From Branchiostoma floridae (lineage: Eukaryota; Chordata; Leptocardii; Amphioxiformes; Branchiostomatidae): a stretch of DNA of 64,000 bases. A model generated the notes under the pieces. The model saw only the letters and a program-made list of their open reading frames with translations, did no database searches and had not been told where the DNA came from. Position 1 is the first letter of the stretch. Every line of letters begins with the position of its first letter. A program made the translations under genes and the position numbers. Below are positions 46,175 to 60,334 of the stretch, in pieces. The stretch covers positions 1,391,410 through 1,455,409 of the forward strand of contig NC_049985.1 of the NCBI RefSeq assembly GCF_000003815.2, written 5' to 3'.

Positions 46175-49100
46175 TTAGGCAAAGACATAGAACACAACTA
46201 ACATGAACGCGACTACAAAAGGGCTACGCGATGGCCCTCCATTGCTACCTGACCTGACCCCGAGGTTATGGACATGCTTTCCCATCAGCCTCGGCGTGTA
46301 CGTAGCCGTATTGACTTCTTACGGTAGATCTCAAAGAAAACGGTATAGTAAAGCCGCGATGCGTTATATCAGCCTAAAAATGGTTCCCCGTTCTTGGAAG
46401 GGGTTGATAAGTCACGAGGAACTATTTTTGAAAGCTAGACCGCAGTTAGAAGTCATGTAATTACGCCTGAAAGTTGACCAATTTTCAGGGTTTCAGTGGT
46501 GCGTTTCGCTATTGTTTTCGGGACGAGTTACGCACTGCATGGGGTTTTCCGATATACCGGGTTATAGGATAAGGATCAACTGCTTCCGGGTCAACAATAC
46601 TTATAGTGTAGTGTTGTTGCACTATCACCTGGCAGTAACTTTAACACATTTAATGGATTACTGTACTCTTGAGGTTGTTTTTACATACCATACTACAATG
46701 TAGAGGCTTTTCGTTATGGGGGAGGTTTATACGGAATACGGATAGACCGGTGCCATACTACAGGTTTGTAAAAAAAGTGACAGCCTGTACCAATGTCGAA
46801 GCTTTCCCGGCTATCAAGGCAAGTTTATACGGATGGAACAGAGACTTTCTACAATAAAGATTAGCACAGTTCTTGTCCTGTCGAGATTTTACGTTACTAA
46901 GGGAGTTGTATTCAGATACAAATGTGCCATACTACAGGTGTGTCCAAAAAAATTGACACAGTTGTGTCAATGCCCAAGATTTGCGTTCTTAAGAGAGGTT
47001 TGTATGGATCAAACAGAGACTTTTTACATGTGTATCATATAGAATGACACTGTTCTTGTCCTGTTAAGATTTTACGTTATAAAGGGAGCTTTTATTCGGA
47101 TAGAACAGTGCCATACTACAGGTGTGTCAAAACAAATTGACACAGTTGCGCCAATGCCGAAGATTTCCGTTCTTAAGAGAGAAAGTTTGTACGAATGAAA
47201 CAGAGACTTTCTACATGTGTATCATATAGAATGACACTGTTCTTGTCCTGTTGAGATTTTACGTTGTTGAGGGAGGTTTATTCGGATATAATGTCATACT
47301 ACAGGTGTGTCAAAACAAATTGACACAGTTGCGCCAATGCTGAAGATTTGCGTTCTTAAAGGAGGTTGTTACGGATGAAACAGAGACTATTCACATGTGT
47401 ATCATATAGAATGACACTGTTCTTGTCCTGTTGAGATTTTACGTTATTAAGGGAGGTTTATGCGGATGGAACAGTGCCATACTAGAGGTGTGTCAAAAAA
47501 TTGACACAGTTGTGCCAATGCCAAAGATTTCCGTTCTTAGGGAAGGTTGTTACGGATGAAACAGAGACTATCTACATGTGTATCATATAGAATGACACTG
47601 TTTTTGTCCTGTTGAGATTTTACGTTATTGAGGGCGGTTTATTCGGATATAAATTCCATACTACAGGTGTGTCAAAATAAATTGACACAGTTGCGCCAAT
47701 ACTGAATATTTGCGTTCTTAAACTTTAAGAACGCAAATCTTCAGCATTGGCGCAACTCCGGAAGGTTGTTACGGATCAAACAGAAATTTTCTTCATGTGT
47801 ATCATATACAATGACACTGTTCTTGTCCTGTTGAGATTTTACGTTATTAAGGGAGGTTTATGCGGATAGAACAGTGCCATACTAGAGATGTGTCAAAAAA
47901 TTGACACAGTTGTGCCAATGCCAAAGATTTCCGTTCTTAGAGAAGGTTGTTACGGATGAAACAGACACTTTCTACATGTGTATCATATAGACTTACACTG
48001 TTCTTGTCCTGTTGAGATTTTACGTTATTAAGGGAGGTTAATGTGGATAGAACGGTGCCAAACTACTTTTGTGTCAAAAAATTTACAATTTTCATTCTAT
48101 ATGATACAACATGTAGAATGTTCCATCCGTATAAACCTCCCATAAGAACGGAAATCTCTGGCATTGGCACAACTGTGTCAATTTTTTTGACACATATGTA
48201 GTTTGGCATTGTTTTATCCGCATATACTTCCCTTACTAACGTGAAATCTCAACAGGACAACAACAGTGTCATTCTACACTGTACACATGTAGAAAGTGTC
48301 TGTTTCAGCCGTAACAACCTCCTTTAATAACGCAAATCTTCAGCAATGGCGCAACTGTGTCAATTTTTTTGACACACCTGTAGTATGGCATTTATATCCG
48401 AATAAACCTCCCTCAATAACGTAAAATATCAACAGGACAAAAACAGTGTCATTCTATATGATAGACATGTAGAAAGTCTCTGTTTAATCAGTACAAAGCT
48501 CTCTTAAGAACGGAAATCTACGGCATTGGCGCAACTGTGTCAATTTTTTTGACACACCTGTTGTATGGTACTGTTCTATCCAAATAAAACTCCCGTAATA
48601 ACGTAAAACCTCAACAGGACAAGAACAGTGTCATTCTATATGATACACATGTAGAAGGTCTCTGTTTCATCCCTACAAAGCTGTCTTAAGATTGGAAATC
48701 GTCGGTATTGGCGCAACTGTGTCAATTTGCTTTGACACACCTGTAGTATGGCACTGTTCTATCCGAATAAACCTCCCTTTACAACGGTAAAATCCTAATA
48801 GAACAAGAAGTGTCATTCTGTAAGATACACATGTAGAAGTTCTCTGTTTCATCCGTACAAAGCTCTCTTAAGTTAGGAAATCGTCGGCATTGGCGCAACT
48901 GTGTCAATTTGTTTTGACACACCTGTAGTATGGCACCGTTCTATCCGAATAAAACTCCCGTAATAACGTAAAATCTCAACAGGACAAGAACAGTGTCATT
49001 CTATATGATACACATGTAGAAAGTCTCTGTTTCATCCGTACAATGCTCTCTTTAGATTGCAAATCGTCGGCATTGGCGCAACTGTGTCAATTTGATTTGA

Positions 49101-50659
49101 CACACTTGAGTATGACACTGTTTTGTCCGAATAAAACTCCCTTTATAACGTAAAATCTTAATAGGGCAAGAACAGTGTCATTCTTTATGATACACATGTA
49201 GAAAGTTTCATCCGTATAAACCTCCTTTCAGAACGCAAATGTTTTGCATTCGCACAACTGTGTCAATTATTTGATACACCTATATATGGCACTGTGCTAT
49301 CCGCATAAACCTCCATTAATAACGTAAAATCTCAACAGGACAAAAACAGTGTCATTCTATTTAATAAACATGTAGAAGGTCTCTGTTTTATCCGTACAAA
49401 CCTGTCTTAAGAGCGGAAATCTTCGGCATTGGCGCAACTGTGTCAAATTGTTTTGACACACCTGTAGTATGGCACTGTTCTATCCAAATAAAATTCCTGT
49501 AATAACGTAAAACCTCAACATTACAAGAACAGTGTCATTCTATATGATACACATGTAGAAAGTCTCTGTTTCATCCGTACAAAGCTCTCTTAAGATTGGA
49601 AATCGTCGGCATTGGCGCAACTGTGTCAATTTGTTTTGACACACTTGAGTATGGCACTGTTCATCCGAAAGAAAACTCTCTTTATAACGTAAAATCTTAA
49701 TAGGACAAGGACAGTGTCATTCTGTAAGATACACATGTAGAAAGTCTCTGTTTCATCCGTACAAAGCTCTCTTAAGATTGGAAATCGTCGGCATTGGCAC
49801 AACTGTGTCAATTTTTTTGGACACAACTCACGGTAGTATGGCACATTTGTATCTGAATACACCTCCCTTAGTAACGTAAAATCTCGACAGGACAAGAACT
49901 GTATGTACTAATCTTTATTGTAGAAAGTCTCTGTTCCATCCGTATAAACTTGCCTTGATAGCCGGGAAAGCTTCGACATTGGCACAGGCTGTCACTTTTT
50001 TTTACCGACACCTGTAGTAATTGGCACTCAGGTCTATCCGTATTCCGTATAAACCTCCCTCGTAACGAAAAGCCTCTACATTGTAGTCTGGTATGTAAAA
50101 ACAACCTCAAGAGTACAGTAATCCATTAAATGTGTTAAATTTACTGCCATATCACCGACTTAGGTGATCATATGTGCAACAACAATACACTATTAGTATG
50201 GTTGACCCGGAAGCAGTTGATCCTTGTCCTATAACCCGGTATATCGGAAAACCCCATGCAGTGCGTAACTCGTCCCGAAAACAATAGCGAAACGCACCAC
50301 TGAAACCCTGAAAATTGGTCAACTTTCAGGCGTAATTACATGACTTCTAACTGCGGTCTAGCTTTCAAAAATAGTTCCTCGTGATTTATCAACCCCTTCC
50401 AAGAACGGGGAACCATTTTTTAGGCTGATATAACGCATCGCGGCTTTACTATACCGTTTTCTTTGAGATCTACCGTAAGAAGTCAATACGGCTACGTACA
50501 GGCACCTCCTCGTTCCAAAACTGCATCCGGGACTCCCGCAGTCTGACGTCAGCAGATGACGTCACGTCCAGCCGGAGGTACTCTTGGGATGAAGAAGTGT
50601 AACGTGGCCAGTGGTCCAAGTCACGCATGCGCGCTGCTCCTGTTGAGTCATTGGGGTCT
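46175..50659 (-). pseudogene. H: orphan cholinesterase-like last exon, split by a 4.2-kb transposon
   Basis: The upstream part (50501-50659) has a good acceptor and encodes [14 protein letters not shown] to FWNEEVP. The downstream part (46175-46296) continues with RLMGKHVHN, a Gly/Ser linker, then PFVVAFMLVVFYVFA and TAA, an intact GPI-type signal. Allowing for the short target duplication, the two pieces match an ordinary exon 10 of 277 bp in one frame. With the insertion, translation would leave the exon and stop after ten residues read from the transposon end. No exon 9 or other exon lies between this exon and gene I's own last exon (52274-52481). It is either a second last exon of gene I or the remnant of a separate gene. 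Confidence 0.8.
46297..50500. mobile_element. 4.2-kb fold-back transposon (long inverted repeats with internal satellite arrays)
   Basis: The ends TGTACGTAGCCGTATTGACT and its complement are perfect. Inverted similarity continues inward for roughly 440 bp of unique sequence (46297-46740 against 50060-50500), then through arrays of about 181-186-bp units. Units lie in one orientation from about 46745 to 48085 and in the opposite orientation from there to about 50060. Landmarks such as GTGTCATTCTATATGATACA recur about six times on the left and nine on the right. Flanks show a 3-4-bp duplication (GGC, possibly GGCA/GGCG). No transposase ORF is seen, so it is non-autonomous. The superfamily is uncertain. 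Confidence 0.85.
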
Positions 50660-52273: not shown

Positions 52274-55200
52274 TCAAAGTTCATCCGACCCGGCGGTTCG
52301 AACCTCCCTTCCCATCAGCCTCGGCACCTCCTCGTTCCAAAACTTCATCCGGGACTCCCGCAGCCTGACGTCAGCAGATGACGTCACGTCCAGCCGGAGG
52401 TACTCTTGGGATGAAGAAGTGTAACGTGGCCAGTGCACCATGTCACGCATGCGCACCGCTCCCGCAGAGTCATTGGGGTCTCTGTAAAAAAGAAGGAGAG
52501 AGAAAGACAGATATACAGAAACAGAGAGTGTGAGTGACAGAGGAATAGAGAGAGAATCAGAAGATTGGTATCTCTTTGCATTGAAGAGACCAGAGTATTA
52601 TATCAGTTGTAGATCTAGAACTGTTATTTCTAAGAAATACGTTAGAATGTACTCACTGCAGCATATAAGATAGGCTCACTTACCCGTTAGTGGCGAAGTT
52701 GACCCAGTACGCCATCATGTCCAGACTCAGGTCCCTCTCCTCCTGGGTGAAGCTGTACTTCCAGGAGTTGCCGGTGACGTCACGCAGGAGCGGGATGCCG
52801 AACATGAAGAACACGTCATCACCGTGGTCAACCTTTACGTACCTACAGGTAGAAACAGTATAGGAGTAAAACTTTTTTTTTTATATCTAAGACGTCTGAA
52901 GCGATTTTTTATCTTCTTCCTGTTACTTCTACCCTGGGAAGAAGAATCCATTGTGACCCCGATGGCATCCCTGATGTTCACGTTCAAGGTTTTACCCTGG
53001 GTGACCAAAGACGGTGCGCCTAGGACATGCTAGCAATGCCCCGGTGCACGCATGCGCGCTTGAACTTAACACCCTCCTCACTAGCTGACCCTTGCTTCAC
53101 AGAGTCTGGAGAAGGCCAGCTGGATAATGGGGATAGGTTACTTCATGTCATGCAAGAGAATCTCGTAAAATGATCATGTGTATAGCCCAAGTAAGTGTGT
53201 GCCTTTTTGTTTTAGTTAATATGGATATAAAAACGCACTACGTTCTTAAAAAAGTACCCCGTAGAGAGGCCTCCAGGAAGGATACCGAAGTACATACATA
53301 TGAAATCACTTGTTAGTGGAAATATCAATATAACAATTTCCGAGCAAACGTTTACGTACGGCGGGCGGTAAGAGAAGACCGACGCGCTGTGCTGCAGCTC
53401 GTACTGGTACACTCGACTGGAGGCTGCGTAGAGAAGCAATTCAACGTTAATCCAAGAAACAAAAGGGGACCGAGTACCGAACCATGACGTACACGTGCGC
53501 CAACATAACTCCAATCTAAATATTGTCCATCGATTACAACTCTTAGCTCTCTACTAGAGAGATAACTGTAGAACCAATCTGAGATTGGACCATTACCCCG
53601 TTTCATCCGCTCATAAGTTTTCACAGATATTAAGGTCCAGGTCCGCACCTGAGCCAGAATTTTCTGTACTGGTACCCACCCCTACCTGGCATACCTGCCT
53701 GTGCCTGCGCCATCATGACTGTCGGTGCGGTGAACCACGCGTCCGTCAGGAGTTGGAGGAACTGGTCACGTCGGTAGATCGGATCGTCCGCCATGGCGGG
53801 GTCCAGGTACTGGTCTATCACAGGCTGGAGAATTCTGGCGACACTGCCGTCCTGAAGGATAATAGAGAAGAAGGACTATACAAAAGTCTCGATCATGGTC
53901 AATACTATTGTAGCCTGAAAGTCCATCGAAGAATTATTGAATTGCAAATGTATTGTATTTCTTATCATTTCTGATAATGTGTGTAGTTACTAGGTACTAC
54001 GTACATATTTCTTCGCAATTGTGCCACTGAACTGTCGGCTATGGTACATAGAATAAATGAATCGCTAAGTAGGAATTATATTCCCCTTACCGGGTACTGG
54101 CCAGCAACTTGGTGCAGTTCAAACGGCAGGACAGTTTCCAACTCCGACCTCGTCATCCCATCTTCATCAACGTATTTCAAATGGTGTCTTTCTGAAAGGG
54201 AGAACCCGAACTCGTCGTTGTTGGTGCCTAGAAGGTAGTCCACCTCTTTGACCTGCTTCTTGTGCATCAGGTCCTACATTTCATAGAAAAAAAACACACT
54301 AAACTGACATGTGTATTATGGCTCTCGAGTCCTCTGGTTTTCTTTGACCACTTGTTTTACACGAGTAGAGAACTGGCAGAAGATTAGCTGCGGACGGTCT
54401 TTGGCATTTTGAATTTCTTTCAAAATACGTCAGGCATTGTCTCGATCATGGTTAATACTACTATAGCCGAACGCGATGTCACATTGATCTCAAATTTCGC
54501 CATCAATGATCTACATTATCAGTTTCAGTATGTATGTCATGGGTGAACGGCCGTAAGGTCGTCATGCACATGCAGTCGTCATAGTTACCATCAGAGGGAT
54601 GTCATTCCGGAAACGCTATCGACAGCATGAACAGATACAACACAATCATTGCCAAAGTCACAACAGATGTTCTTATCCATTAACAGAATCATAATCGACA
54701 CGTCATGATATCTGTATCTATATATAGCAAGTATAACCGCCGTTCGGCGTAACACACCAGCTCCGCAGGCACGCGGCGCGGTAGCAGCTGGTTATATTAC
54801 ACTGAAAGACCCGTCACACCTTACACATCTATCTGCAAGCGTTCTTTGAAACTACCCAGATGCCCCTACTGTGCTTGGTGATAACAAATTCCCCTGTACG
54901 ATAGTTCTAGATGTGGTAAGTTGTGATCTTTAAAAGATCCGTGACGAACCATTCTTACCCAAGGACTTTGTAAGAGGAACCTGCCGTCGATGACCACTGA
55001 CGGAATCATCAGCGTCAAGAGGTCCTCACTCGGAAGCCTGTCAGGAGCAAACGATATTTCTAAACCATTATATCAGGTTGGAAAATTGCTACATAACAAG
55101 GTTGTTTACTGATAACCAGGAACTATCAATATACAATAAACAGACAAAGCTTAAGTTTCTGTGACTGTTTGTCACCTTACTCAGGGCAATGCTGATTGGT

Positions 55201-58200
55201 CATAATCCATACTGCAGCTAGGTGTCGCTGTCAACAATGCGGTCTCAAACGTCAAGTATTACCCTATATGCGGCCCCTTAAGCTAAGGGAACAACCCGCC
55301 GTACGTGCAAATACGTGCTGTGTACGTGCCACAACGTGGGCAATCTTTTGGGATCCGTACGTGGTAAGTACCGCCTCCGTACGAACTCGAAGGGAATTCG
55401 ACGGATTTTGGAGCACGCAGACACGCCGTAGAACTTTACGTGCATGCAAAACTTTGTGTGCGGATTCGCCCCCCGTACGTGCCAGTACGGGCGACGCGCC
55501 TGCCCTGTACAGCCTGAACGTTTTCAGAAATACGTGGCGGACGTGGCCTACCAAAATAACGTACGGACAAATTGCAGGTACGGCGGGTTGTGCCCTTAGC
55601 TTAACGTAAAGCATTGTCGCATACAAGGATACCTGTTATCGTATACACAAACTTAGATATTGTCCACTGCAATTACTAAAGAAGTTACACAATTATTAGT
55701 CACTTCTTAAGAATGTGGTCCCAGCCGTGTCTGAATCTATATTATCCCTTCAGCATTGTTCATGACTGGAATAGATTTTCATTGTACATACATGTAGATC
55801 CTGGTTGTGAATACAAAAACTTCCTTTCCCAATAATTCTTAACACCCGTGTTAACAAAATGCAAGAACAAACATAGCCCTTTTTGACACACTACAGCGCA
55901 AGCAAAAATATATCCTGTAAAGCCCATCTGTAGTCTTGACAAACTCTTCGAGTCTATTTCGTTGCAATTACTCTGATATAAAAATTTACACTGTGACAGA
56001 AAATTTAGCTTCCAAGTCAAGTATTATTCAAGATCTGGATCAACGTTCAACGTTGAAGTGTAATTTTTAACACAAAGAATTGACATCCTCAAATTTTCGA
56101 CTAATCATTGGCGGCATGGCCAAATAAGTACATGAGCAATCCTCTAATGATTTTGTGACGTCACGTTATGCACATAGAGCATGTGACTTGTCGAGCAGTG
56201 AATCATAAGTTTCAGAGAGTCTGTAGTGCCCCCCGTCTCTGTTGAGAATGACATCTAGCAGCGCAGATGAACCTTCAGTTATCATTTGTTCATGATGTAC
56301 AGAATTGTACATACCCCCTCAGACAACTCATCATGTCATCGTAGGAGTCCGTGCTGCAGTTCAAGCTGACAGCGAGGTTTTGTGTTTGTGTGATGTCGCC
56401 TTTCTGTGCGACTGGAACTCCCGCCACGCCGCTCTGAGAGATGGCCCGGTGGAACAGTCCCGTTGCCATGGAAGACATGACGAGCAGGGAGACAGAGTAG
56501 CCTCCAGCTGACTCTCCAAATATGGTGACTCTGTCGGGATCTCCTCCGAAGTTCCGGATGTTCGCCTGAACCCACTCGAGGGCCTTTATCTTCATGTATT
56601 ATAGGACATATCATTCATAATCAAAGTCAGTCGTACAATATAGTGGATGCTGTCTGGTAAAATATGAATACAATAAGTAAATAGTGAACAAAGAAATTAT
56701 TAGAGTTTAGCTTGAATGTTCATCTGTGTTGGTAGAAGTCATTATCAAACTAGTTAAACTCTGTAATATCCAACACCAAAATTGGACTCACCCAAATTTT
56801 CGACTGAACACCATAAGTCTCTGTCAAGGAATGAACAATCCACTACTGTCGTGACGTCACGTTATGCAGATAGAACACGTGACTCAGTAAGCAGTGGATC
56901 ATACGTTGCAGGAAGTCTATGGGGTTCAGTCGAAAATCCGGGTGAGTCCAATTTTTGTGTTGGAAATTACAGTTTAACTAGTTTAATAATCATTAAAGCT
57001 GGCAGACACATGAGAGGGGGAGAGAAATGGGGAGAGAGAGGTAGAGACAGAAAGACAGGCACACAAATAGATAGGAATTCAAGCAAGCCAAACAATGCTT
57101 TTATTGGGAGAAAATAATCTAACCGCATCCAGAAGCCCAAAGTTGCCGGGTGCGTCATCGTCCCGGGTCGGCAGGAAGCCCAGGTTACCCAGCCGGTAGT
57201 TGATGGTTACCATGACGACGTTATGGAGTGACGTGGGGATCTCAGCTGGGTAGGTTGTACCACTGCCACCCATCCAACCTCCACCAGGGATCCACACCAT
57301 CACCTGAAACAAACGGGACATACATACATCCATTGTAGTTCCACATAGATACGAATGGGTGGTCGCATAGCGTCATATGGTGGCATGAAATAAGCAAGGT
57401 CGAAACAATAAGAAAAGTCATGAAGCTAAAAGTACTTTGCAAAAAATCCAGTTTCCCTTGCCAATATAAACTTCAGTTGTAACAATTCTAATGGACATCA
57501 GGGCATACTTTTATCATTGTATTAAAGGTAAAGATATCTCACAGGCAGGTTTGCAGTAGCGGATACGTCTGGAGTGTACACGTTCAGGAACAGGCAGTCC
57601 TCGCTGATGGCGATACCGCCGGATCCCATGACCTCGATGTGGATCGGACCAGGCAGGGGAAACTCGTACTGTGGACATCTGGAGCCGAACTCTGTGACGT
57701 CACGGATACCTGTCCAGCGGCTCGGGTCCTGGGGAGGGCGCCACCTAGCGGTGGCAAGAGGAACGTACAACAGAAAACCCTAGGCCTTTTGTACGTCTTT
57801 TAAACACTGCGCGATGTCACTCTCACAGTAAATTCAACAGATCATTTATTTATTGCCCTCGCCAAGAAGGTTATGTTTTCGACGCCGTGACTTTTATAGT
57901 TTGGACAATAGAGAAGATGTTCAGATGGTATGATTTATGCAGTAGTATTATTGCGGACCTTTACTTTCAAAATCAATAAGAAATATTTATGTTACGACAC
58001 TCGAAAAGGTTATTGTTATCATTTGGCAACGTCATGAGGTCGTGAAGTTCATCGATTCGTGTTGGTGCTCTTCGCTGCGTATTGATATGCTTATTTATTT
58101 ATTCATTTATTTATTAGGATTCTCCATATATGGAGGGTATGTTCTTTCCTTCCTCCACCTAGCACCCACCTGAGGTGCCCCACAGGCGGAGCGGCGTAAG

Positions 58201-60334
58201 GAATCCCCTTGAAGGTGAAGACGCGGTCAAAGACGGCATTTCCGACAACAGAGGAGGTCAGGAACTCTGAACCTCTCACGTCGCCATGAGTGGTGGAGAC
58301 GACAACGGCATCTGGAAAGTTGTGTACCCATATAACGTTACATATGCATCGTTAACTTTTCTCGTCAAAAAGAATAGCCAGTGAGTAGTCAGTGAGTACC
58401 ATCCTGGCTCAATCCTTTTGCTTGCTAACCACGGCAAGTGAAAGTATTGAACCAGAGGTCACTACGGAGGATGGTACTCACTGACTACTCAGGCTATCCT
58501 TTTTGACGAGAAAAGATAACGATGTAACGTTACAAAATGGCTACTAAAAGGACGCTCAAAGCTGTAGAATGTCCAGTTTATCACCACCAGATTATGTTTC
58601 CCGCGTAACGGTAGCATGCCCGTAGCCAGGGGGGGTTCGGGGGGTTCGGAAGAACCCCCCCACACGCTCAAAGGTCCGCTTTTTCACACTCAAAGGTCCA
58701 CTTTTTCACACCCAAAGGTCCACTATTTCTTGTCCAAGATTTTTTTTCAAAGACATGACTGATTTGCATTTTTCACTGATCGACATTTCATTCAATCTTA
58801 GTGATTCTATCAGCAAAATTTGCCCTAGAAAGTGCAGGAAATGGCTTTACAGAGGGTCCAGATTTCAAAATTTACCTGGACCTCCATTGCGATATCTCGC
58901 ACCATTGGTGTCGGACTTGGTGAAAATATTTCGGGGGAGTCGGCCTCAAAGACTTATGCCAAAAGCCTTCTGTATTTTAATAGAAATCCCATTACAGTAA
59001 ACTTAGCCAGTGAATTTTGCCCGTCAAAATGCAGGAAATGGCGTGTTAGAGGGTCAAGATTTCAATTTTTTCCGGGGGAGCATGCCCCCGAACCCCCCTA
59101 GGAAGCTCACGCCTTCGGCGTGAGTCTCGCGCCTGCGGCGCTCGATGGTCCCATAAATACTATAAAGAACCCCCCCAACCAAAATCCTGGCTACGGGCAT
59201 GGGTAGGAGCTTTGAAATGCCCTTTTTTTGGCTTTACGCCATGATGCCACCTATTACACGGATGACATCTCATAGAATACCAAAATTAATTTCAATGTCA
59301 AAGAAGAAAATCTGAAACAACCAAACTACAGAGTCTATTGTTCTATATAGAACTATTACTATATAGCATCAAGGGTCATGAATATTTTTAGAAAGTCAGT
59401 TCCACAGCAATCTGCTAGGTGGGTTCGAGCATACACATACAGTATTCCCTCGTCATATCTGTCACTTATAGATCAACACGGCAGCACACACAAAGGATGC
59501 AAAACCAGGACGTCCTGTTGCAGTACCCAGGTGAACCACCAGAGGACCCCAAAACACATTAAAATTACAGGGTTCACAACACCCATGAACCAAATGTCCT
59601 CGCAATCCATCTAGGGGTTCTGAAAGACCCCGGTTTCTTATCCTGGACCCAGCAGTTGACCCCCACCCCCACCGGACTACATAAACAACCTAGTCTGTCT
59701 GGTAGCCAGAAACAATGGTGGGAACAAATGATCACAGATTAGCGTAAGATTCAAATATTTGTCTGTACTCATTTCAGACCATATAGAATGACCCAGATAA
59801 TCGGAAGAGTGTTACAAAGTCCAAAATGGTTCAGTCATACAGTTTGAGTTACCTCCTCGCATGATCAAGACAATGCTATCTGTAAATTTCAGTCTTCGTA
59901 AAATACTAATAAACCTTGTTCAAATTTCAACTTACATTACTAAATCAGCCCTGTCAAAGTTCATTAGTATCAACGTGTCTACTGGTATCTAAATTTCCAA
60001 CTTGAAAATGTCTAGTTCATAGCTGAATCGGCCTTGTTTGGCCCAGGTCCAATTCAAACCGGGGCCCGACCGGGATGTTTAAGGAAACGAAAAATTTACC
60101 AAGGAATATCATTACGCTCATGACTAATTTTGTTTACGTTCTCTTTGTTTTGTTGCCTTTTTTTATCATATTACTCGTTTCCGAAAGGTACCCGACCGGA
60201 CCCCGGATTGGGAATTGAGACCTAAGCCTTAGTTTTGTGTGTATGAAAATTGCCTCACCTGATTTACGCGGAAGAACCAGCAGAATCACCACCGTACAGA
60301 CGACAAACGGACGGAGACCCCGAGCGCCGGCCAT
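52274..60334 (-). CDS. Gene I: cholinesterase-like carboxylesterase with rebuilt 3' exons and SDEL terminus
   Basis: Eleven exons: 60259-60334, 58170-58311, 57543-57744, 57124-57303, 56315-56589, 54959-55037, 54091-54273, 53686-53851, 53360-53423, 52684-52842 and 52274-52481, about 577 aa. Signal peptide MAGARGLRPFVVCTVVILLV. The Ser elbow GESAGG, Glu NNDEFG and His VDHGDD are kept, but the oxyanion motif reads IPGGG (His replaced by Pro). Exon 9 is split by a private 517-bp intron. Exon 8 ends 15 bp early at a donor formed by a transposon end; an alternative donor at 53695 is also in frame. The exon 5 acceptor (atacatgaag) has a poor pyrimidine tract. The last exon lacks the GPI tail and ends TAGSDEL, resembling an ER-retrieval signal. 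All junctions keep the frame, so the gene may be functional, though degeneration cannot be excluded. Confidence 0.8.
52834..53359 (-). other. Insertion-derived intron in exon 9 of gene I (intron 52843-53359)
   Basis: The insert is flanked by the direct repeat GTACGTAAA (minus strand; 53351-53359 and 52834-52842). The first copy supplies donor GTACGT. The second follows the acceptor CCTGTAG. Splicing there joins 64 bp and 159 bp into exactly the 223 bp of the uninterrupted exon 9 in B, C, E and F, in frame (RPPYVKVDHGDD). No terminal inverted repeats or transposase are recognised in the 508 bp of new sequence. Confidence 0.8.
53454..53600 (-). mobile_element. Non-LTR reverse transcriptase fragment in intron 8 of gene I
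   Basis: Minus-strand translation reads WFYSYLSSRELRVVIDGQ, then VRHGSVLGPLLFL. This is the conserved RT segment usually written as G(V)PQGSVLGPLLF. It lies immediately upstream of the exon 9 acceptor. It is short and non-functional. Confidence 0.75.
53628..53684 (-). mobile_element. hAT-like MITE end at the exon 8 donor of gene I
   Basis: Minus strand TAGGGGTGGGTACCAGTACA followed by AGGTGCGGACCTGGACC matches the TIR and interior of the element at 9469-9899. The preceding G plus TAGGGG creates the GTAGGG donor used to end exon 8. Confidence 0.65.
54709..54905 (+). repeat. Interspersed repeat (GTATAACC family), copy 7
   Basis: AGTATAACCGCCGTTCGGCG, CACACCAGCTCCGCAGGCAC and GTAGCAGCTGGTTATATTAC, in intron 6 of gene I. 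Confidence 0.55.
55278..55604 (+). mobile_element. TTAA-type MITE, intact copy
   Basis: TTAA at both ends encloses GCTAAGGGAACAACCCGCCG and its complement GGCGGGTTGTGCCCTTAGC. 327 bp, GTACG-rich, no coding capacity for a transposase. It is the uninterrupted counterpart of 9311-10063, in intron 5 of gene I. Confidence 0.8.
56052..56230. mobile_element. Partial long-TIR MITE (34026 family)
   Basis: Shares CAAATTTTCGACT, TGACGTCACGTTATGCA and GAGCAGTGAATCATAAGTTT with the copies at 34026 and 56746, but the ends are degraded. Confidence 0.5.
56746..56987. mobile_element. Long-TIR MITE, well-preserved copy in intron 4 of gene I
   Basis: About 75-bp inverted ends: CTAGTTAAACT, CCAACACCAAAATTGGACTC and AAATTTTCGACTGAAC on the left, complements on the right. 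It is shared with the element in intron 6 of gene F. Confidence 0.75.
58337..58536. repeat. Local palindrome in intron 1 of gene I
   Basis: CGTTACATATGCATCGTTAA and CTTTTCTCGTCAAAAAGAAT with GTAGTCAGTGAGTACCATCC on the left are mirrored on the right, with a loop of about 60 bp. The CGTCAAAAAGGATA word is also near exon 2 in other paralogues, so part of the intron has been inversely duplicated. Confidence 0.65.
58617..59202. mobile_element. DNA transposon remnant with CCCGTAGCCAGG ends
   Basis: CATGCCCGTAGCCAGGGGGG at the left and CCTGGCTACGGGCATG at the right are inverted ends, with CATG as possible target duplication. Inside are two degenerate repeats of GCAGGAAATGGC. It lies in intron 1 of gene I. 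Confidence 0.65.
60026..60231. mobile_element. MITE family TTAGGCTTAGGTCACA, copy 2
   Basis: CAAACCGGGGCCCGACCGGG on the left, CCCGACCGGACCCCGGATTG and GACCTAAGCCTTAG on the right. It lies in intron 1 of gene I just downstream of exon 1. Confidence 0.6.

What the first reader, a model, noticed from the sequence alone, without database searches (positions are those of the whole stretch)
52834..53423. Apparent intron gain by insertion: target duplication became both splice sites
Paralogues B, C, E and F carry exon 9 as one uninterrupted 223-bp exon (D 232, G 229). In gene I it is split by 517 bp, bounded by a direct 9-bp repeat GTACGTAAA. Using the first copy as donor (GTACGT) and the position before the second copy as acceptor (CTGTAG) leaves 64 + 159 = 223 bp, in frame, with conserved flanking residues. 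This is what the target-duplication model of intron creation predicts. Well-preserved vertebrate or invertebrate-chordate examples are few. No TIRs are visible, so the inserted element is unknown.
Basis: partly seen in the sequence, partly recalled or inferred. Interest (0 to 1): 0.9.

Follow-up and report, generated by a model that had tools for sequence, protein, structure and literature searches.

The report
Young intron made by an insertion
One gene in a family of esterase genes, probably from amphioxus, has an exon split by about 500 extra bases flanked by a short duplicated piece of the exon, which looks like a new intron born from an insertion; the process is known, clean examples in our wider animal group seem few, and it is not yet shown that this one is spliced.

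Summary
In gene I (minus strand) exon 9 is cut into 64 + 159 nt by 517 bp (53359-52843). Its first nine bases, GTACGTAAA, recur exactly as the first nine bases of the resumed exon (12 of 13 with one mismatch). None of 79 other introns scored in the cluster exceeds a 4-base run or 7 of 13. A genome search with the exon gave 70 match rows; the 66 that belong to other, unsplit loci run unbroken over the site, so gain, not loss. Five of ten cluster paralogues carry a latent donor, GTATGT, exactly there. The duplicated tract supplies the donor; the insert supplies the pyrimidine tract and AG, so 'both splice sites' is half right. The insert is single copy at the sensitivity available, lacks terminal inverted repeats, and holds one later passenger, a 54-bp retroelement-like tail with its own 9-bp duplication. 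Source and splicing are unproven. The donor is weak (fourth lowest of 72), and gene I shows other damage, including the weakest acceptor of 77 at another exon. A good new example of a known kind of intron gain, not a new mechanism.

The parts
53360..53423 (-). first part of the split exon (64 nt), [21 protein letters not shown]
   Evidence: CGCAG acceptor before it, aligns to the ten cluster paralogues
53351..53359 (-). first copy of the duplicated tract GTACGTAAA = start of the intron and 5' splice site (GCC|GTACGT)
   Evidence: extends to 53347 as 12 of 13 matches
52843..53359 (-). putative new spliceosomal intron, 517 bp, GT-AG, G+C 0.427
   Evidence: absent in 66 of 66 exon-9 match rows from other loci
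52843..53350 (-). inserted 508 bp, single copy in the genome at the tool's sensitivity apart from the nested stub
52939..52992 (+). nested 54-bp 3' tail of a dispersed non-LTR-like retroelement (tail units of the GTTCAAG type, by eye), antisense to the gene
52993..53001 (-). CCCAGGGTA, first copy of the stub's own 9-bp target duplication
52930..52938 (-). CCCAGGGTA, second copy of the stub's own 9-bp target duplication
52843..52864 (-). 3' splice site supplied by the insert, ...TATACTGTTTCTACCTGTAG, pyrimidines 75% over the 20 nt before AG
   Evidence: leave-one-out score 34th from the bottom of 77 family acceptors
52834..52842 (-). second copy of GTACGTAAA, kept as coding exon (Y-V-K)
52684..52842 (-). 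second part of the split exon (159 nt), with the catalytic-His region DHGDD (role recalled)
52274..58312 (-). gene I, carboxylesterase-family gene, exons a to i as modelled; no stop or frameshift in the joined reading; the first exon or exons upstream of exon a were not modelled
   Evidence: (PF00135, E 5.6e-124)

Best explanation
A staggered cut in exon 9 of gene I, at a place where the exon already carried a latent 5' splice site, was filled with about 445-508 bp of foreign DNA; filling in the staggered ends duplicated 9 (perhaps 13) exon bases. The first copy (GTACGT) now serves as donor, the end of the insert happens to read pyrimidine tract + CTGTAG and serves as acceptor, and the second copy is the resumed exon, so exact splicing restores the old 223-nt exon without changing the protein. 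Later a 54-bp retroelement tail jumped into the new intron and made its own 9-bp duplication. Shown: insertion unique to gene I, duplicated tract, reading frame, GT-AG geometry, nesting. Inferred: the staggered cut, the order of events, and that the RNA is spliced. Source of the insert: slightly more likely captured or filler DNA from break repair than a recognisable transposon.
For: Exact in-register 9-bp repeat, 12/13 extended, against 79 other introns with at most a 4-base run. Both copies carry C where the five paralogues with GTATGT have T, as expected if one was copied from the other; T2 and C also have C there, so it need not be a new change. 66 of 66 match rows from other loci unsplit at the site (four with a late start checked by alignment). 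Latent donor GTATGT at exon position 64 in Z, A, B, E, F, 5 of 10 cluster paralogues. Insert without TIRs and its pieces single copy, as in Daphnia neointrons, where exon-intron direct repeats of 4-12 bp mark staggered breaks (PMC4202315, passages). Acceptor ordinary, 34th from the bottom of 77. No stop in 533 gap-free aligned codons and three-point dN/dS 0.39, within 0.29-0.45 of seven paralogues, also 0.39 downstream of the intron. Retention would put a stop at 53214-53212, before the catalytic His. My estimate: a random insertion with a 9-bp duplication is exactly spliceable in about 4% of cases (some ten positions, 1/256 each), so the precise fit itself favours splicing.
Against: No transcript was available. 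The donor GCC|GTACGT is weak: leave-one-out score 1.68, fourth lowest of 72 family donors, though three established donors score lower (1.07, 1.07, 1.29) and 19 of the 72, itself included, have the same 5 of 9 matches to the U1 consensus. Gene I shows other damage: its exon-d acceptor (ACATGAAG) scores lowest of 77 and its exon-f acceptor second lowest; HGGG has become PGGG; the hydrophobic C-terminal tail is lost and a 4.2-kb inverted-repeat element sits in its second copy of the last exon. It may be failing, and the insertion may simply be harmful. Its dN/dS downstream of the site, 0.39, is third highest of eight genes. No source for the insert was found. Constraint after the insertion cannot be separated from constraint before it.
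Confidence: 0.58

Rival explanations
1. Same event, but the insert is a transposable element: a degenerate or very low-copy element with 9-bp (or 13-bp) target duplications that carries its own 3' splice site and borrows the donor from the duplication, as some introners do.
For: Duplication length fits several transposon and LINE/SINE classes (recalled). The configuration equals that reported for Symbiodinium introners, 3' site carried and 5' site from the duplication (PMC9860276, passages). Amphioxus PRHOXNB gained an intron with a MITE (mentioned in PMC5802833, passage). An old family could escape the seed-based genome search.
Against: Four overlapping pieces of the insert find only themselves, three of them at E up to 10. 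No TIRs; no tail repeat or poly-A at either end (by eye). The only repeated part is the nested stub.
Confidence: 0.3
2. Insertion without splicing: gene I is a decaying gene, the insert stays in the mRNA or triggers decay, and the splice-like ends are coincidence.
For: Weak donor (fourth lowest of 72) and the two weakest acceptors of 77, at exons d and f of the same gene; PGGG in place of HGGG, lost C-terminal tail, duplicated and interrupted last exon.
Against: No stop or frameshift in 549 joined codons; dN/dS like that of its neighbours, on both sides of the insert. The nested stub differs from the commonest bases of its family at about 2 substitutions and 1 deletion (by eye), so the insert is not brand new. 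Exact GT-AG fit at the duplication edges is expected in about 4% of unselected insertions (my estimate).
Confidence: 0.33
3. Ancestral intron kept in gene I and lost in all relatives.
For: None found.
Against: Needs precise loss in each of the 66 other matched loci, distant ones included, and leaves the exact repeat unexplained.
Confidence: 0.02
4. Tandem duplication of an exon stretch containing a splice-like motif (the AGGT model).
For: Direct repeat at both edges.
Against: The whole insert should then resemble the exon; its best match to the 124-kb cluster other than itself is 18 bp at E 0.18, and the tract has no AGGT.
Confidence: 0.02

Closest known systems
Daphnia pulex neointrons formed by repair of staggered double-strand breaks (PMC4202315, passages seen)
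   Same: New intron at one locus, direct repeat of exon bases at its far end (4-12 bp there, 9 here), insert mostly without an identified source.
   Different: The Daphnia study compared intron-bearing and intron-free alleles in populations; here only paralogous empty sites. The internal repeat pair here has a retroelement cause. The insert is longer than I would expect for filler (recalled impression, not measured).
Introners / transposon-born introns with 5' site from the target duplication (PMC9860276, passages seen)
   Same: 3' splice site from the insert, 5' splice site from the duplicated target, mRNA length unchanged.
   Different: Introners are multi-copy families, some with TIRs; this insert is single copy without TIRs. 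The words Branchiostoma, lancelet and chordate do not occur in that paper's main text.
Drosophila sechellia intron from the retrotransposon Doc1053 (PMC3296678, passages seen)
   Same: Single intron gain with target duplications.
   Different: There the element is identified at 98.4% similarity, and one duplication lies 15 nt beyond the intron; here no element is identified and the copies abut the splice sites.
Amphioxus PRHOXNB intron with MITE LanceletTn-2 (mentioned in PMC5802833, passage seen; primary paper not seen)
   Same: Intron gain with inserted DNA in amphioxus.
   Different: Element identified there; no statement on a duplication-derived donor in the passage seen.

Membership tests
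Spliceosomal intron gain by insertion | intron present in one gene, absent at the homologous position in its relatives | tested here: met
   70 match rows: 2 from gene I, 2 from a C5 gene split elsewhere, the other 66 unsplit at the site
Spliceosomal intron gain by insertion | target-site or staggered-end duplication at the two edges | tested here: met
   9/9 and 12/13 in register; 79 other introns at most a 4-base run, 7/13
Spliceosomal intron gain by insertion | removed by splicing in vivo | not testable with these tools
   no transcripts at hand; only motif scores
Introner (transposon-derived multi-copy intron) | many related copies as introns across the genome | tested here: not met
   insert pieces single copy; the search is seed-based, so very diverged copies could be missed
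DNA transposon / MITE | terminal inverted repeats just inside the duplication | tested here: not met
   four inverted pairs listed, none at the insert ends
Non-LTR retrotransposon or SINE as founding insert | A-rich or short-repeat 3' tail abutting the duplication | tested here: not met
   A-tract lies about 35 bp inside one end, nothing at the other (by eye)
Neointron from staggered double-strand-break repair (Daphnia type) | exon direct repeat at the far end of an insert of arbitrary origin | tested here: met
   origin not found
Neointron from staggered double-strand-break repair (Daphnia type) | empty allele in the same population | not testable with these tools
   one assembly only; it has no relatives in this service

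The most novel reading that the evidence does not exclude
Exon 9 of this esterase family is a preferred site of ongoing intron gain in amphioxus: latent exonic donors wait at fixed places, and any staggered insertion that ends in a pyrimidine tract plus AG turns into an exact intron. Two independent splits of the same exon in one genome (gene I with a fresh duplication, and a C5 gene split by 620 bp at another codon with no repeat left) would be two ages of the same process.
Probability: 0.12. Interest if true: 0.75.

Novelty: new member of a known kind. Interest (0 to 1): 0.5.

Why it matters
How introns arise in intron-rich animals is still argued over, because most gained introns have lost their birth marks. 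Here the duplicated target, the empty paralogous sites, the pre-existing latent donor and a later nested insertion that helps to order events are all in one locus, so the birth of a single intron can be tested directly with transcripts and with other haplotypes.

Tried and rejected
Tandem exon duplication as source: rejected, the insert does not resemble the exon or the cluster. Ancestral intron lost elsewhere: rejected. The 54-bp repeated piece as the founding element: rejected, it has its own duplication and lies inside. Recurrent gain in the family by the same mechanism: exon d was searched as a second exon; the 20 best of 127 match rows (gene I and the C5 gene among them) are unsplit, and the C5 split of exon 9 has only 4 of 9 junction matches, so no general pattern is shown. 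A reverse-transcriptase-like peptide that I thought I saw in the intron before exon 9 (about 53450-53620) got no reverse-transcriptase hit in Pfam; I do not claim it.

Mended on checking: my first scoring made the donor the lowest of 72 because it alone had been left out of the training set. With every donor left out in turn it is fourth lowest, and with its whole exon position left out third lowest. The same check showed gene I's exon-d and exon-f acceptors to be the two lowest of 77. I lowered the best explanation from 0.62 to 0.58 and raised the no-splicing rival from 0.30 to 0.33 for that.

Weak points of my controls: 10 of 79 control introns have a wrongly set boundary. The donor matrix comes from a few homologous introns repeated over paralogues. 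The dN/dS comparison used 8 genes; T1, T2 and C were left out, their models lacking some exons. One of the 66 unsplit rows (C9:21784290) holds a stop codon, so not every locus need be a working gene.

Full report
What is there. The window lies at C7:1391410-1455409 of a 513-Mb assembly of 431 contigs. The locus is a cluster of carboxylesterase-family genes (PF00135, E 5.6e-124 for gene I). I joined six fetched stretches with the window into a 124-kb region and modelled eleven genes: T1, T2, T3 and Z upstream of the window, A, B, C, E, F, G and I inside it.

On the minus strand exon 9 (my exon h) of gene I is split at 53360/52842 by 517 bp; 64 + 159 nt restore the 223-nt exon in frame. The interruption begins GTACGTAAA and the resumed exon begins GTACGTAAA; with one mismatch the match extends to 12 of 13. 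Of 80 introns scored in the eleven genes, 79 are controls; none of these has more than a 4-base in-register run, 5 of 9 or 7 of 13. Ten of the 79 have a misplaced boundary in my model and should be discounted.

Gain, not loss. A protein search with the exon against the whole genome gave 70 match rows. Two are the two parts of gene I, two are the parts of a C5 gene split elsewhere, and the other 66 run without a break over the codon where gene I is split. Four with a late start were fetched and checked; they also run through the site. Four of ten cluster paralogues (A, B, E, F) read GTATGTAGG at the site and Z reads GTATGTAAA; gene I reads GTACGTAAA in both copies. In these five of ten, GTATGT is a latent donor at exactly position 64 of the exon, so the insertion fell on a ready-made 5' splice site.

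Anatomy of the insert. The first genome search with the whole segment scored 40 of 71 candidates: itself, 7 paralogous exon matches, and 32 copies of one piece of about 54 bp. Twenty of those 32 were read: the piece looks like the 3' end of a dispersed retroelement, cut at different 5' points, with tail units of the GTTCAAG type (by eye). In gene I it is flanked by CCCAGGGTA on both sides. In the 20 other copies the longest word shared between the flanks is 13 bp (L015), 10 bp (L020), 9 bp (L013, L019) and 8 bp or less in the remaining 16; the method is rough, because longer copies do not end where the script looked. So the stub is a later retro-insertion inside the insert, and it shows about two substitutions and one deletion against its family's commonest bases (by eye). 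Apart from it the insert finds only itself in the genome, and has no terminal inverted repeats. The search is seed-based and skips common words, so an old, diverged family could be missed.

How it would work. Filling a staggered break, by repair or by transposition, duplicates the exon bases between the cuts. The upstream copy offers GTACGT as donor, the insert's own end offers TATACTGTTTCTACCTGTAG as acceptor, and the downstream copy is the old exon. Splicing is then exact. Scored with every site left out in turn, the acceptor is 34th from the bottom of 77 and the donor fourth from the bottom of 72. By abstract, novel Drosophila introns also carry weaker splice sites (PMC2809761, search listing). 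If the insert were retained, a stop would follow at 53214-53212, before the catalytic histidine region.

Is the gene alive? The joined reading from exon a has 549 codons without a stop; upstream exons were not modelled. Its three-point dN/dS is 0.39, inside the 0.29-0.45 of seven paralogues; downstream of the intron it is 0.39, inside 0.15-0.47 but third highest of eight. Against a healthy gene: its exon-d and exon-f acceptors are the two weakest of 77; it has PGGG where seven of seven compared paralogues have HGGG or HGGA. Its last exon is present twice: the first copy ends ...REVRTAGSDEL without the hydrophobic tail of the seven paralogues, and the second is interrupted by a 4.2-kb inverted-repeat element. 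So function is plausible but not secure.

A second split. The C5 gene has the same exon cut by a 620-bp GT-AG interruption (C5:25072701-25072082) at a different codon, HSDE|VFYV, in frame, with only 4 of 9 junction matches. It looks like an independent gain without a surviving repeat. For exon d the 20 best of 127 match rows were unsplit, so gain is not rampant in this family.

Comparison with what is known. Introners that carry the 3' site and borrow the 5' site from the target duplication are documented (PMC9860276, passages). Daphnia neointrons show exon direct repeats of 4-12 bp, read as staggered breaks (PMC4202315, passages). A review lists Oikopleura among species with transposon-born introns and asks that background repeat rates be controlled; in Drosophila 25% of gained and 26% of conserved introns have repeats of 5 bp or more (PMC3443670, passages). 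In amphioxus an intron gain with a MITE is mentioned for PRHOXNB (PMC5802833, passages). A tunicate review describes high intron turnover in Oikopleura (PMC4122922, passages). Searches for amphioxus or Branchiostoma with intron gain (20 of 46 papers listed, 15 of 18) and for chordate novel introns with target duplications (11 of 11) listed no title or abstract opening on this locus; papers not listed were not seen, and most subscription papers are not held.

Verdict. A real and clean insertion with target duplication, probably a gained intron, in a known class. Interest is moderate: the birth marks are unusually complete for a chordate (my judgement), but neither splicing nor the source of the insert is shown.

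Noticed in passing
G000:C5:25072701-25072082 (L065): A second carboxylesterase gene has the same exon split by 620 bp at another codon (HSDE|VFYV), in frame, GT-AG, without a direct repeat (4 of 9 matches).
   Followed up: partly
window 46297-50500: A 4.2-kb long-inverted-repeat element interrupts the second copy of gene I's last exon: arms 86% identical over about 1.8 kb, built of ~182-bp tandem units, tips TGTACGTAGCCGTATTGACTTC and its complement. It looks like a foldback-type element (recalled class); the exon ends at 50501 and resumes at about 46296.
   Followed up: partly
window 52310-52480 and 50500-50658: The last exon of gene I is present twice; the first copy ends ...PRLMGREVRTAGSDEL and lacks the hydrophobic C-terminal tail found in seven of seven compared paralogues, the second is interrupted by the inverted-repeat element.
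   Followed up: partly
window, acceptors before exon d (about 56590) and exon f (about 54274) of gene I: These are the two lowest-scoring acceptors of 77 in the cluster (ACATGAAG and AATGTAG endings), a sign that gene I may be decaying.
   Followed up: no
window, exon c of gene I (57303-57124): Gene I has IPGGGW where the seven compared paralogues have IHGGGW or IHGGAW in the oxyanion-hole motif (motif role recalled).
   Followed up: no
exon g ends of A, B, E, F, G, Z, T3: Where gene I reads CAG|GTATGC, six paralogues read GCATGC and F reads TCATGC; in most of them a GTAGG about 24 nt further would keep the frame, so these genes probably use a longer exon (by eye).
   Followed up: no
3' end of exon 9 in the eleven cluster genes: The last ~50 nt (~70 in most) are almost identical across paralogues, third positions included, which suggests gene conversion in the cluster (by eye).
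   Followed up: no
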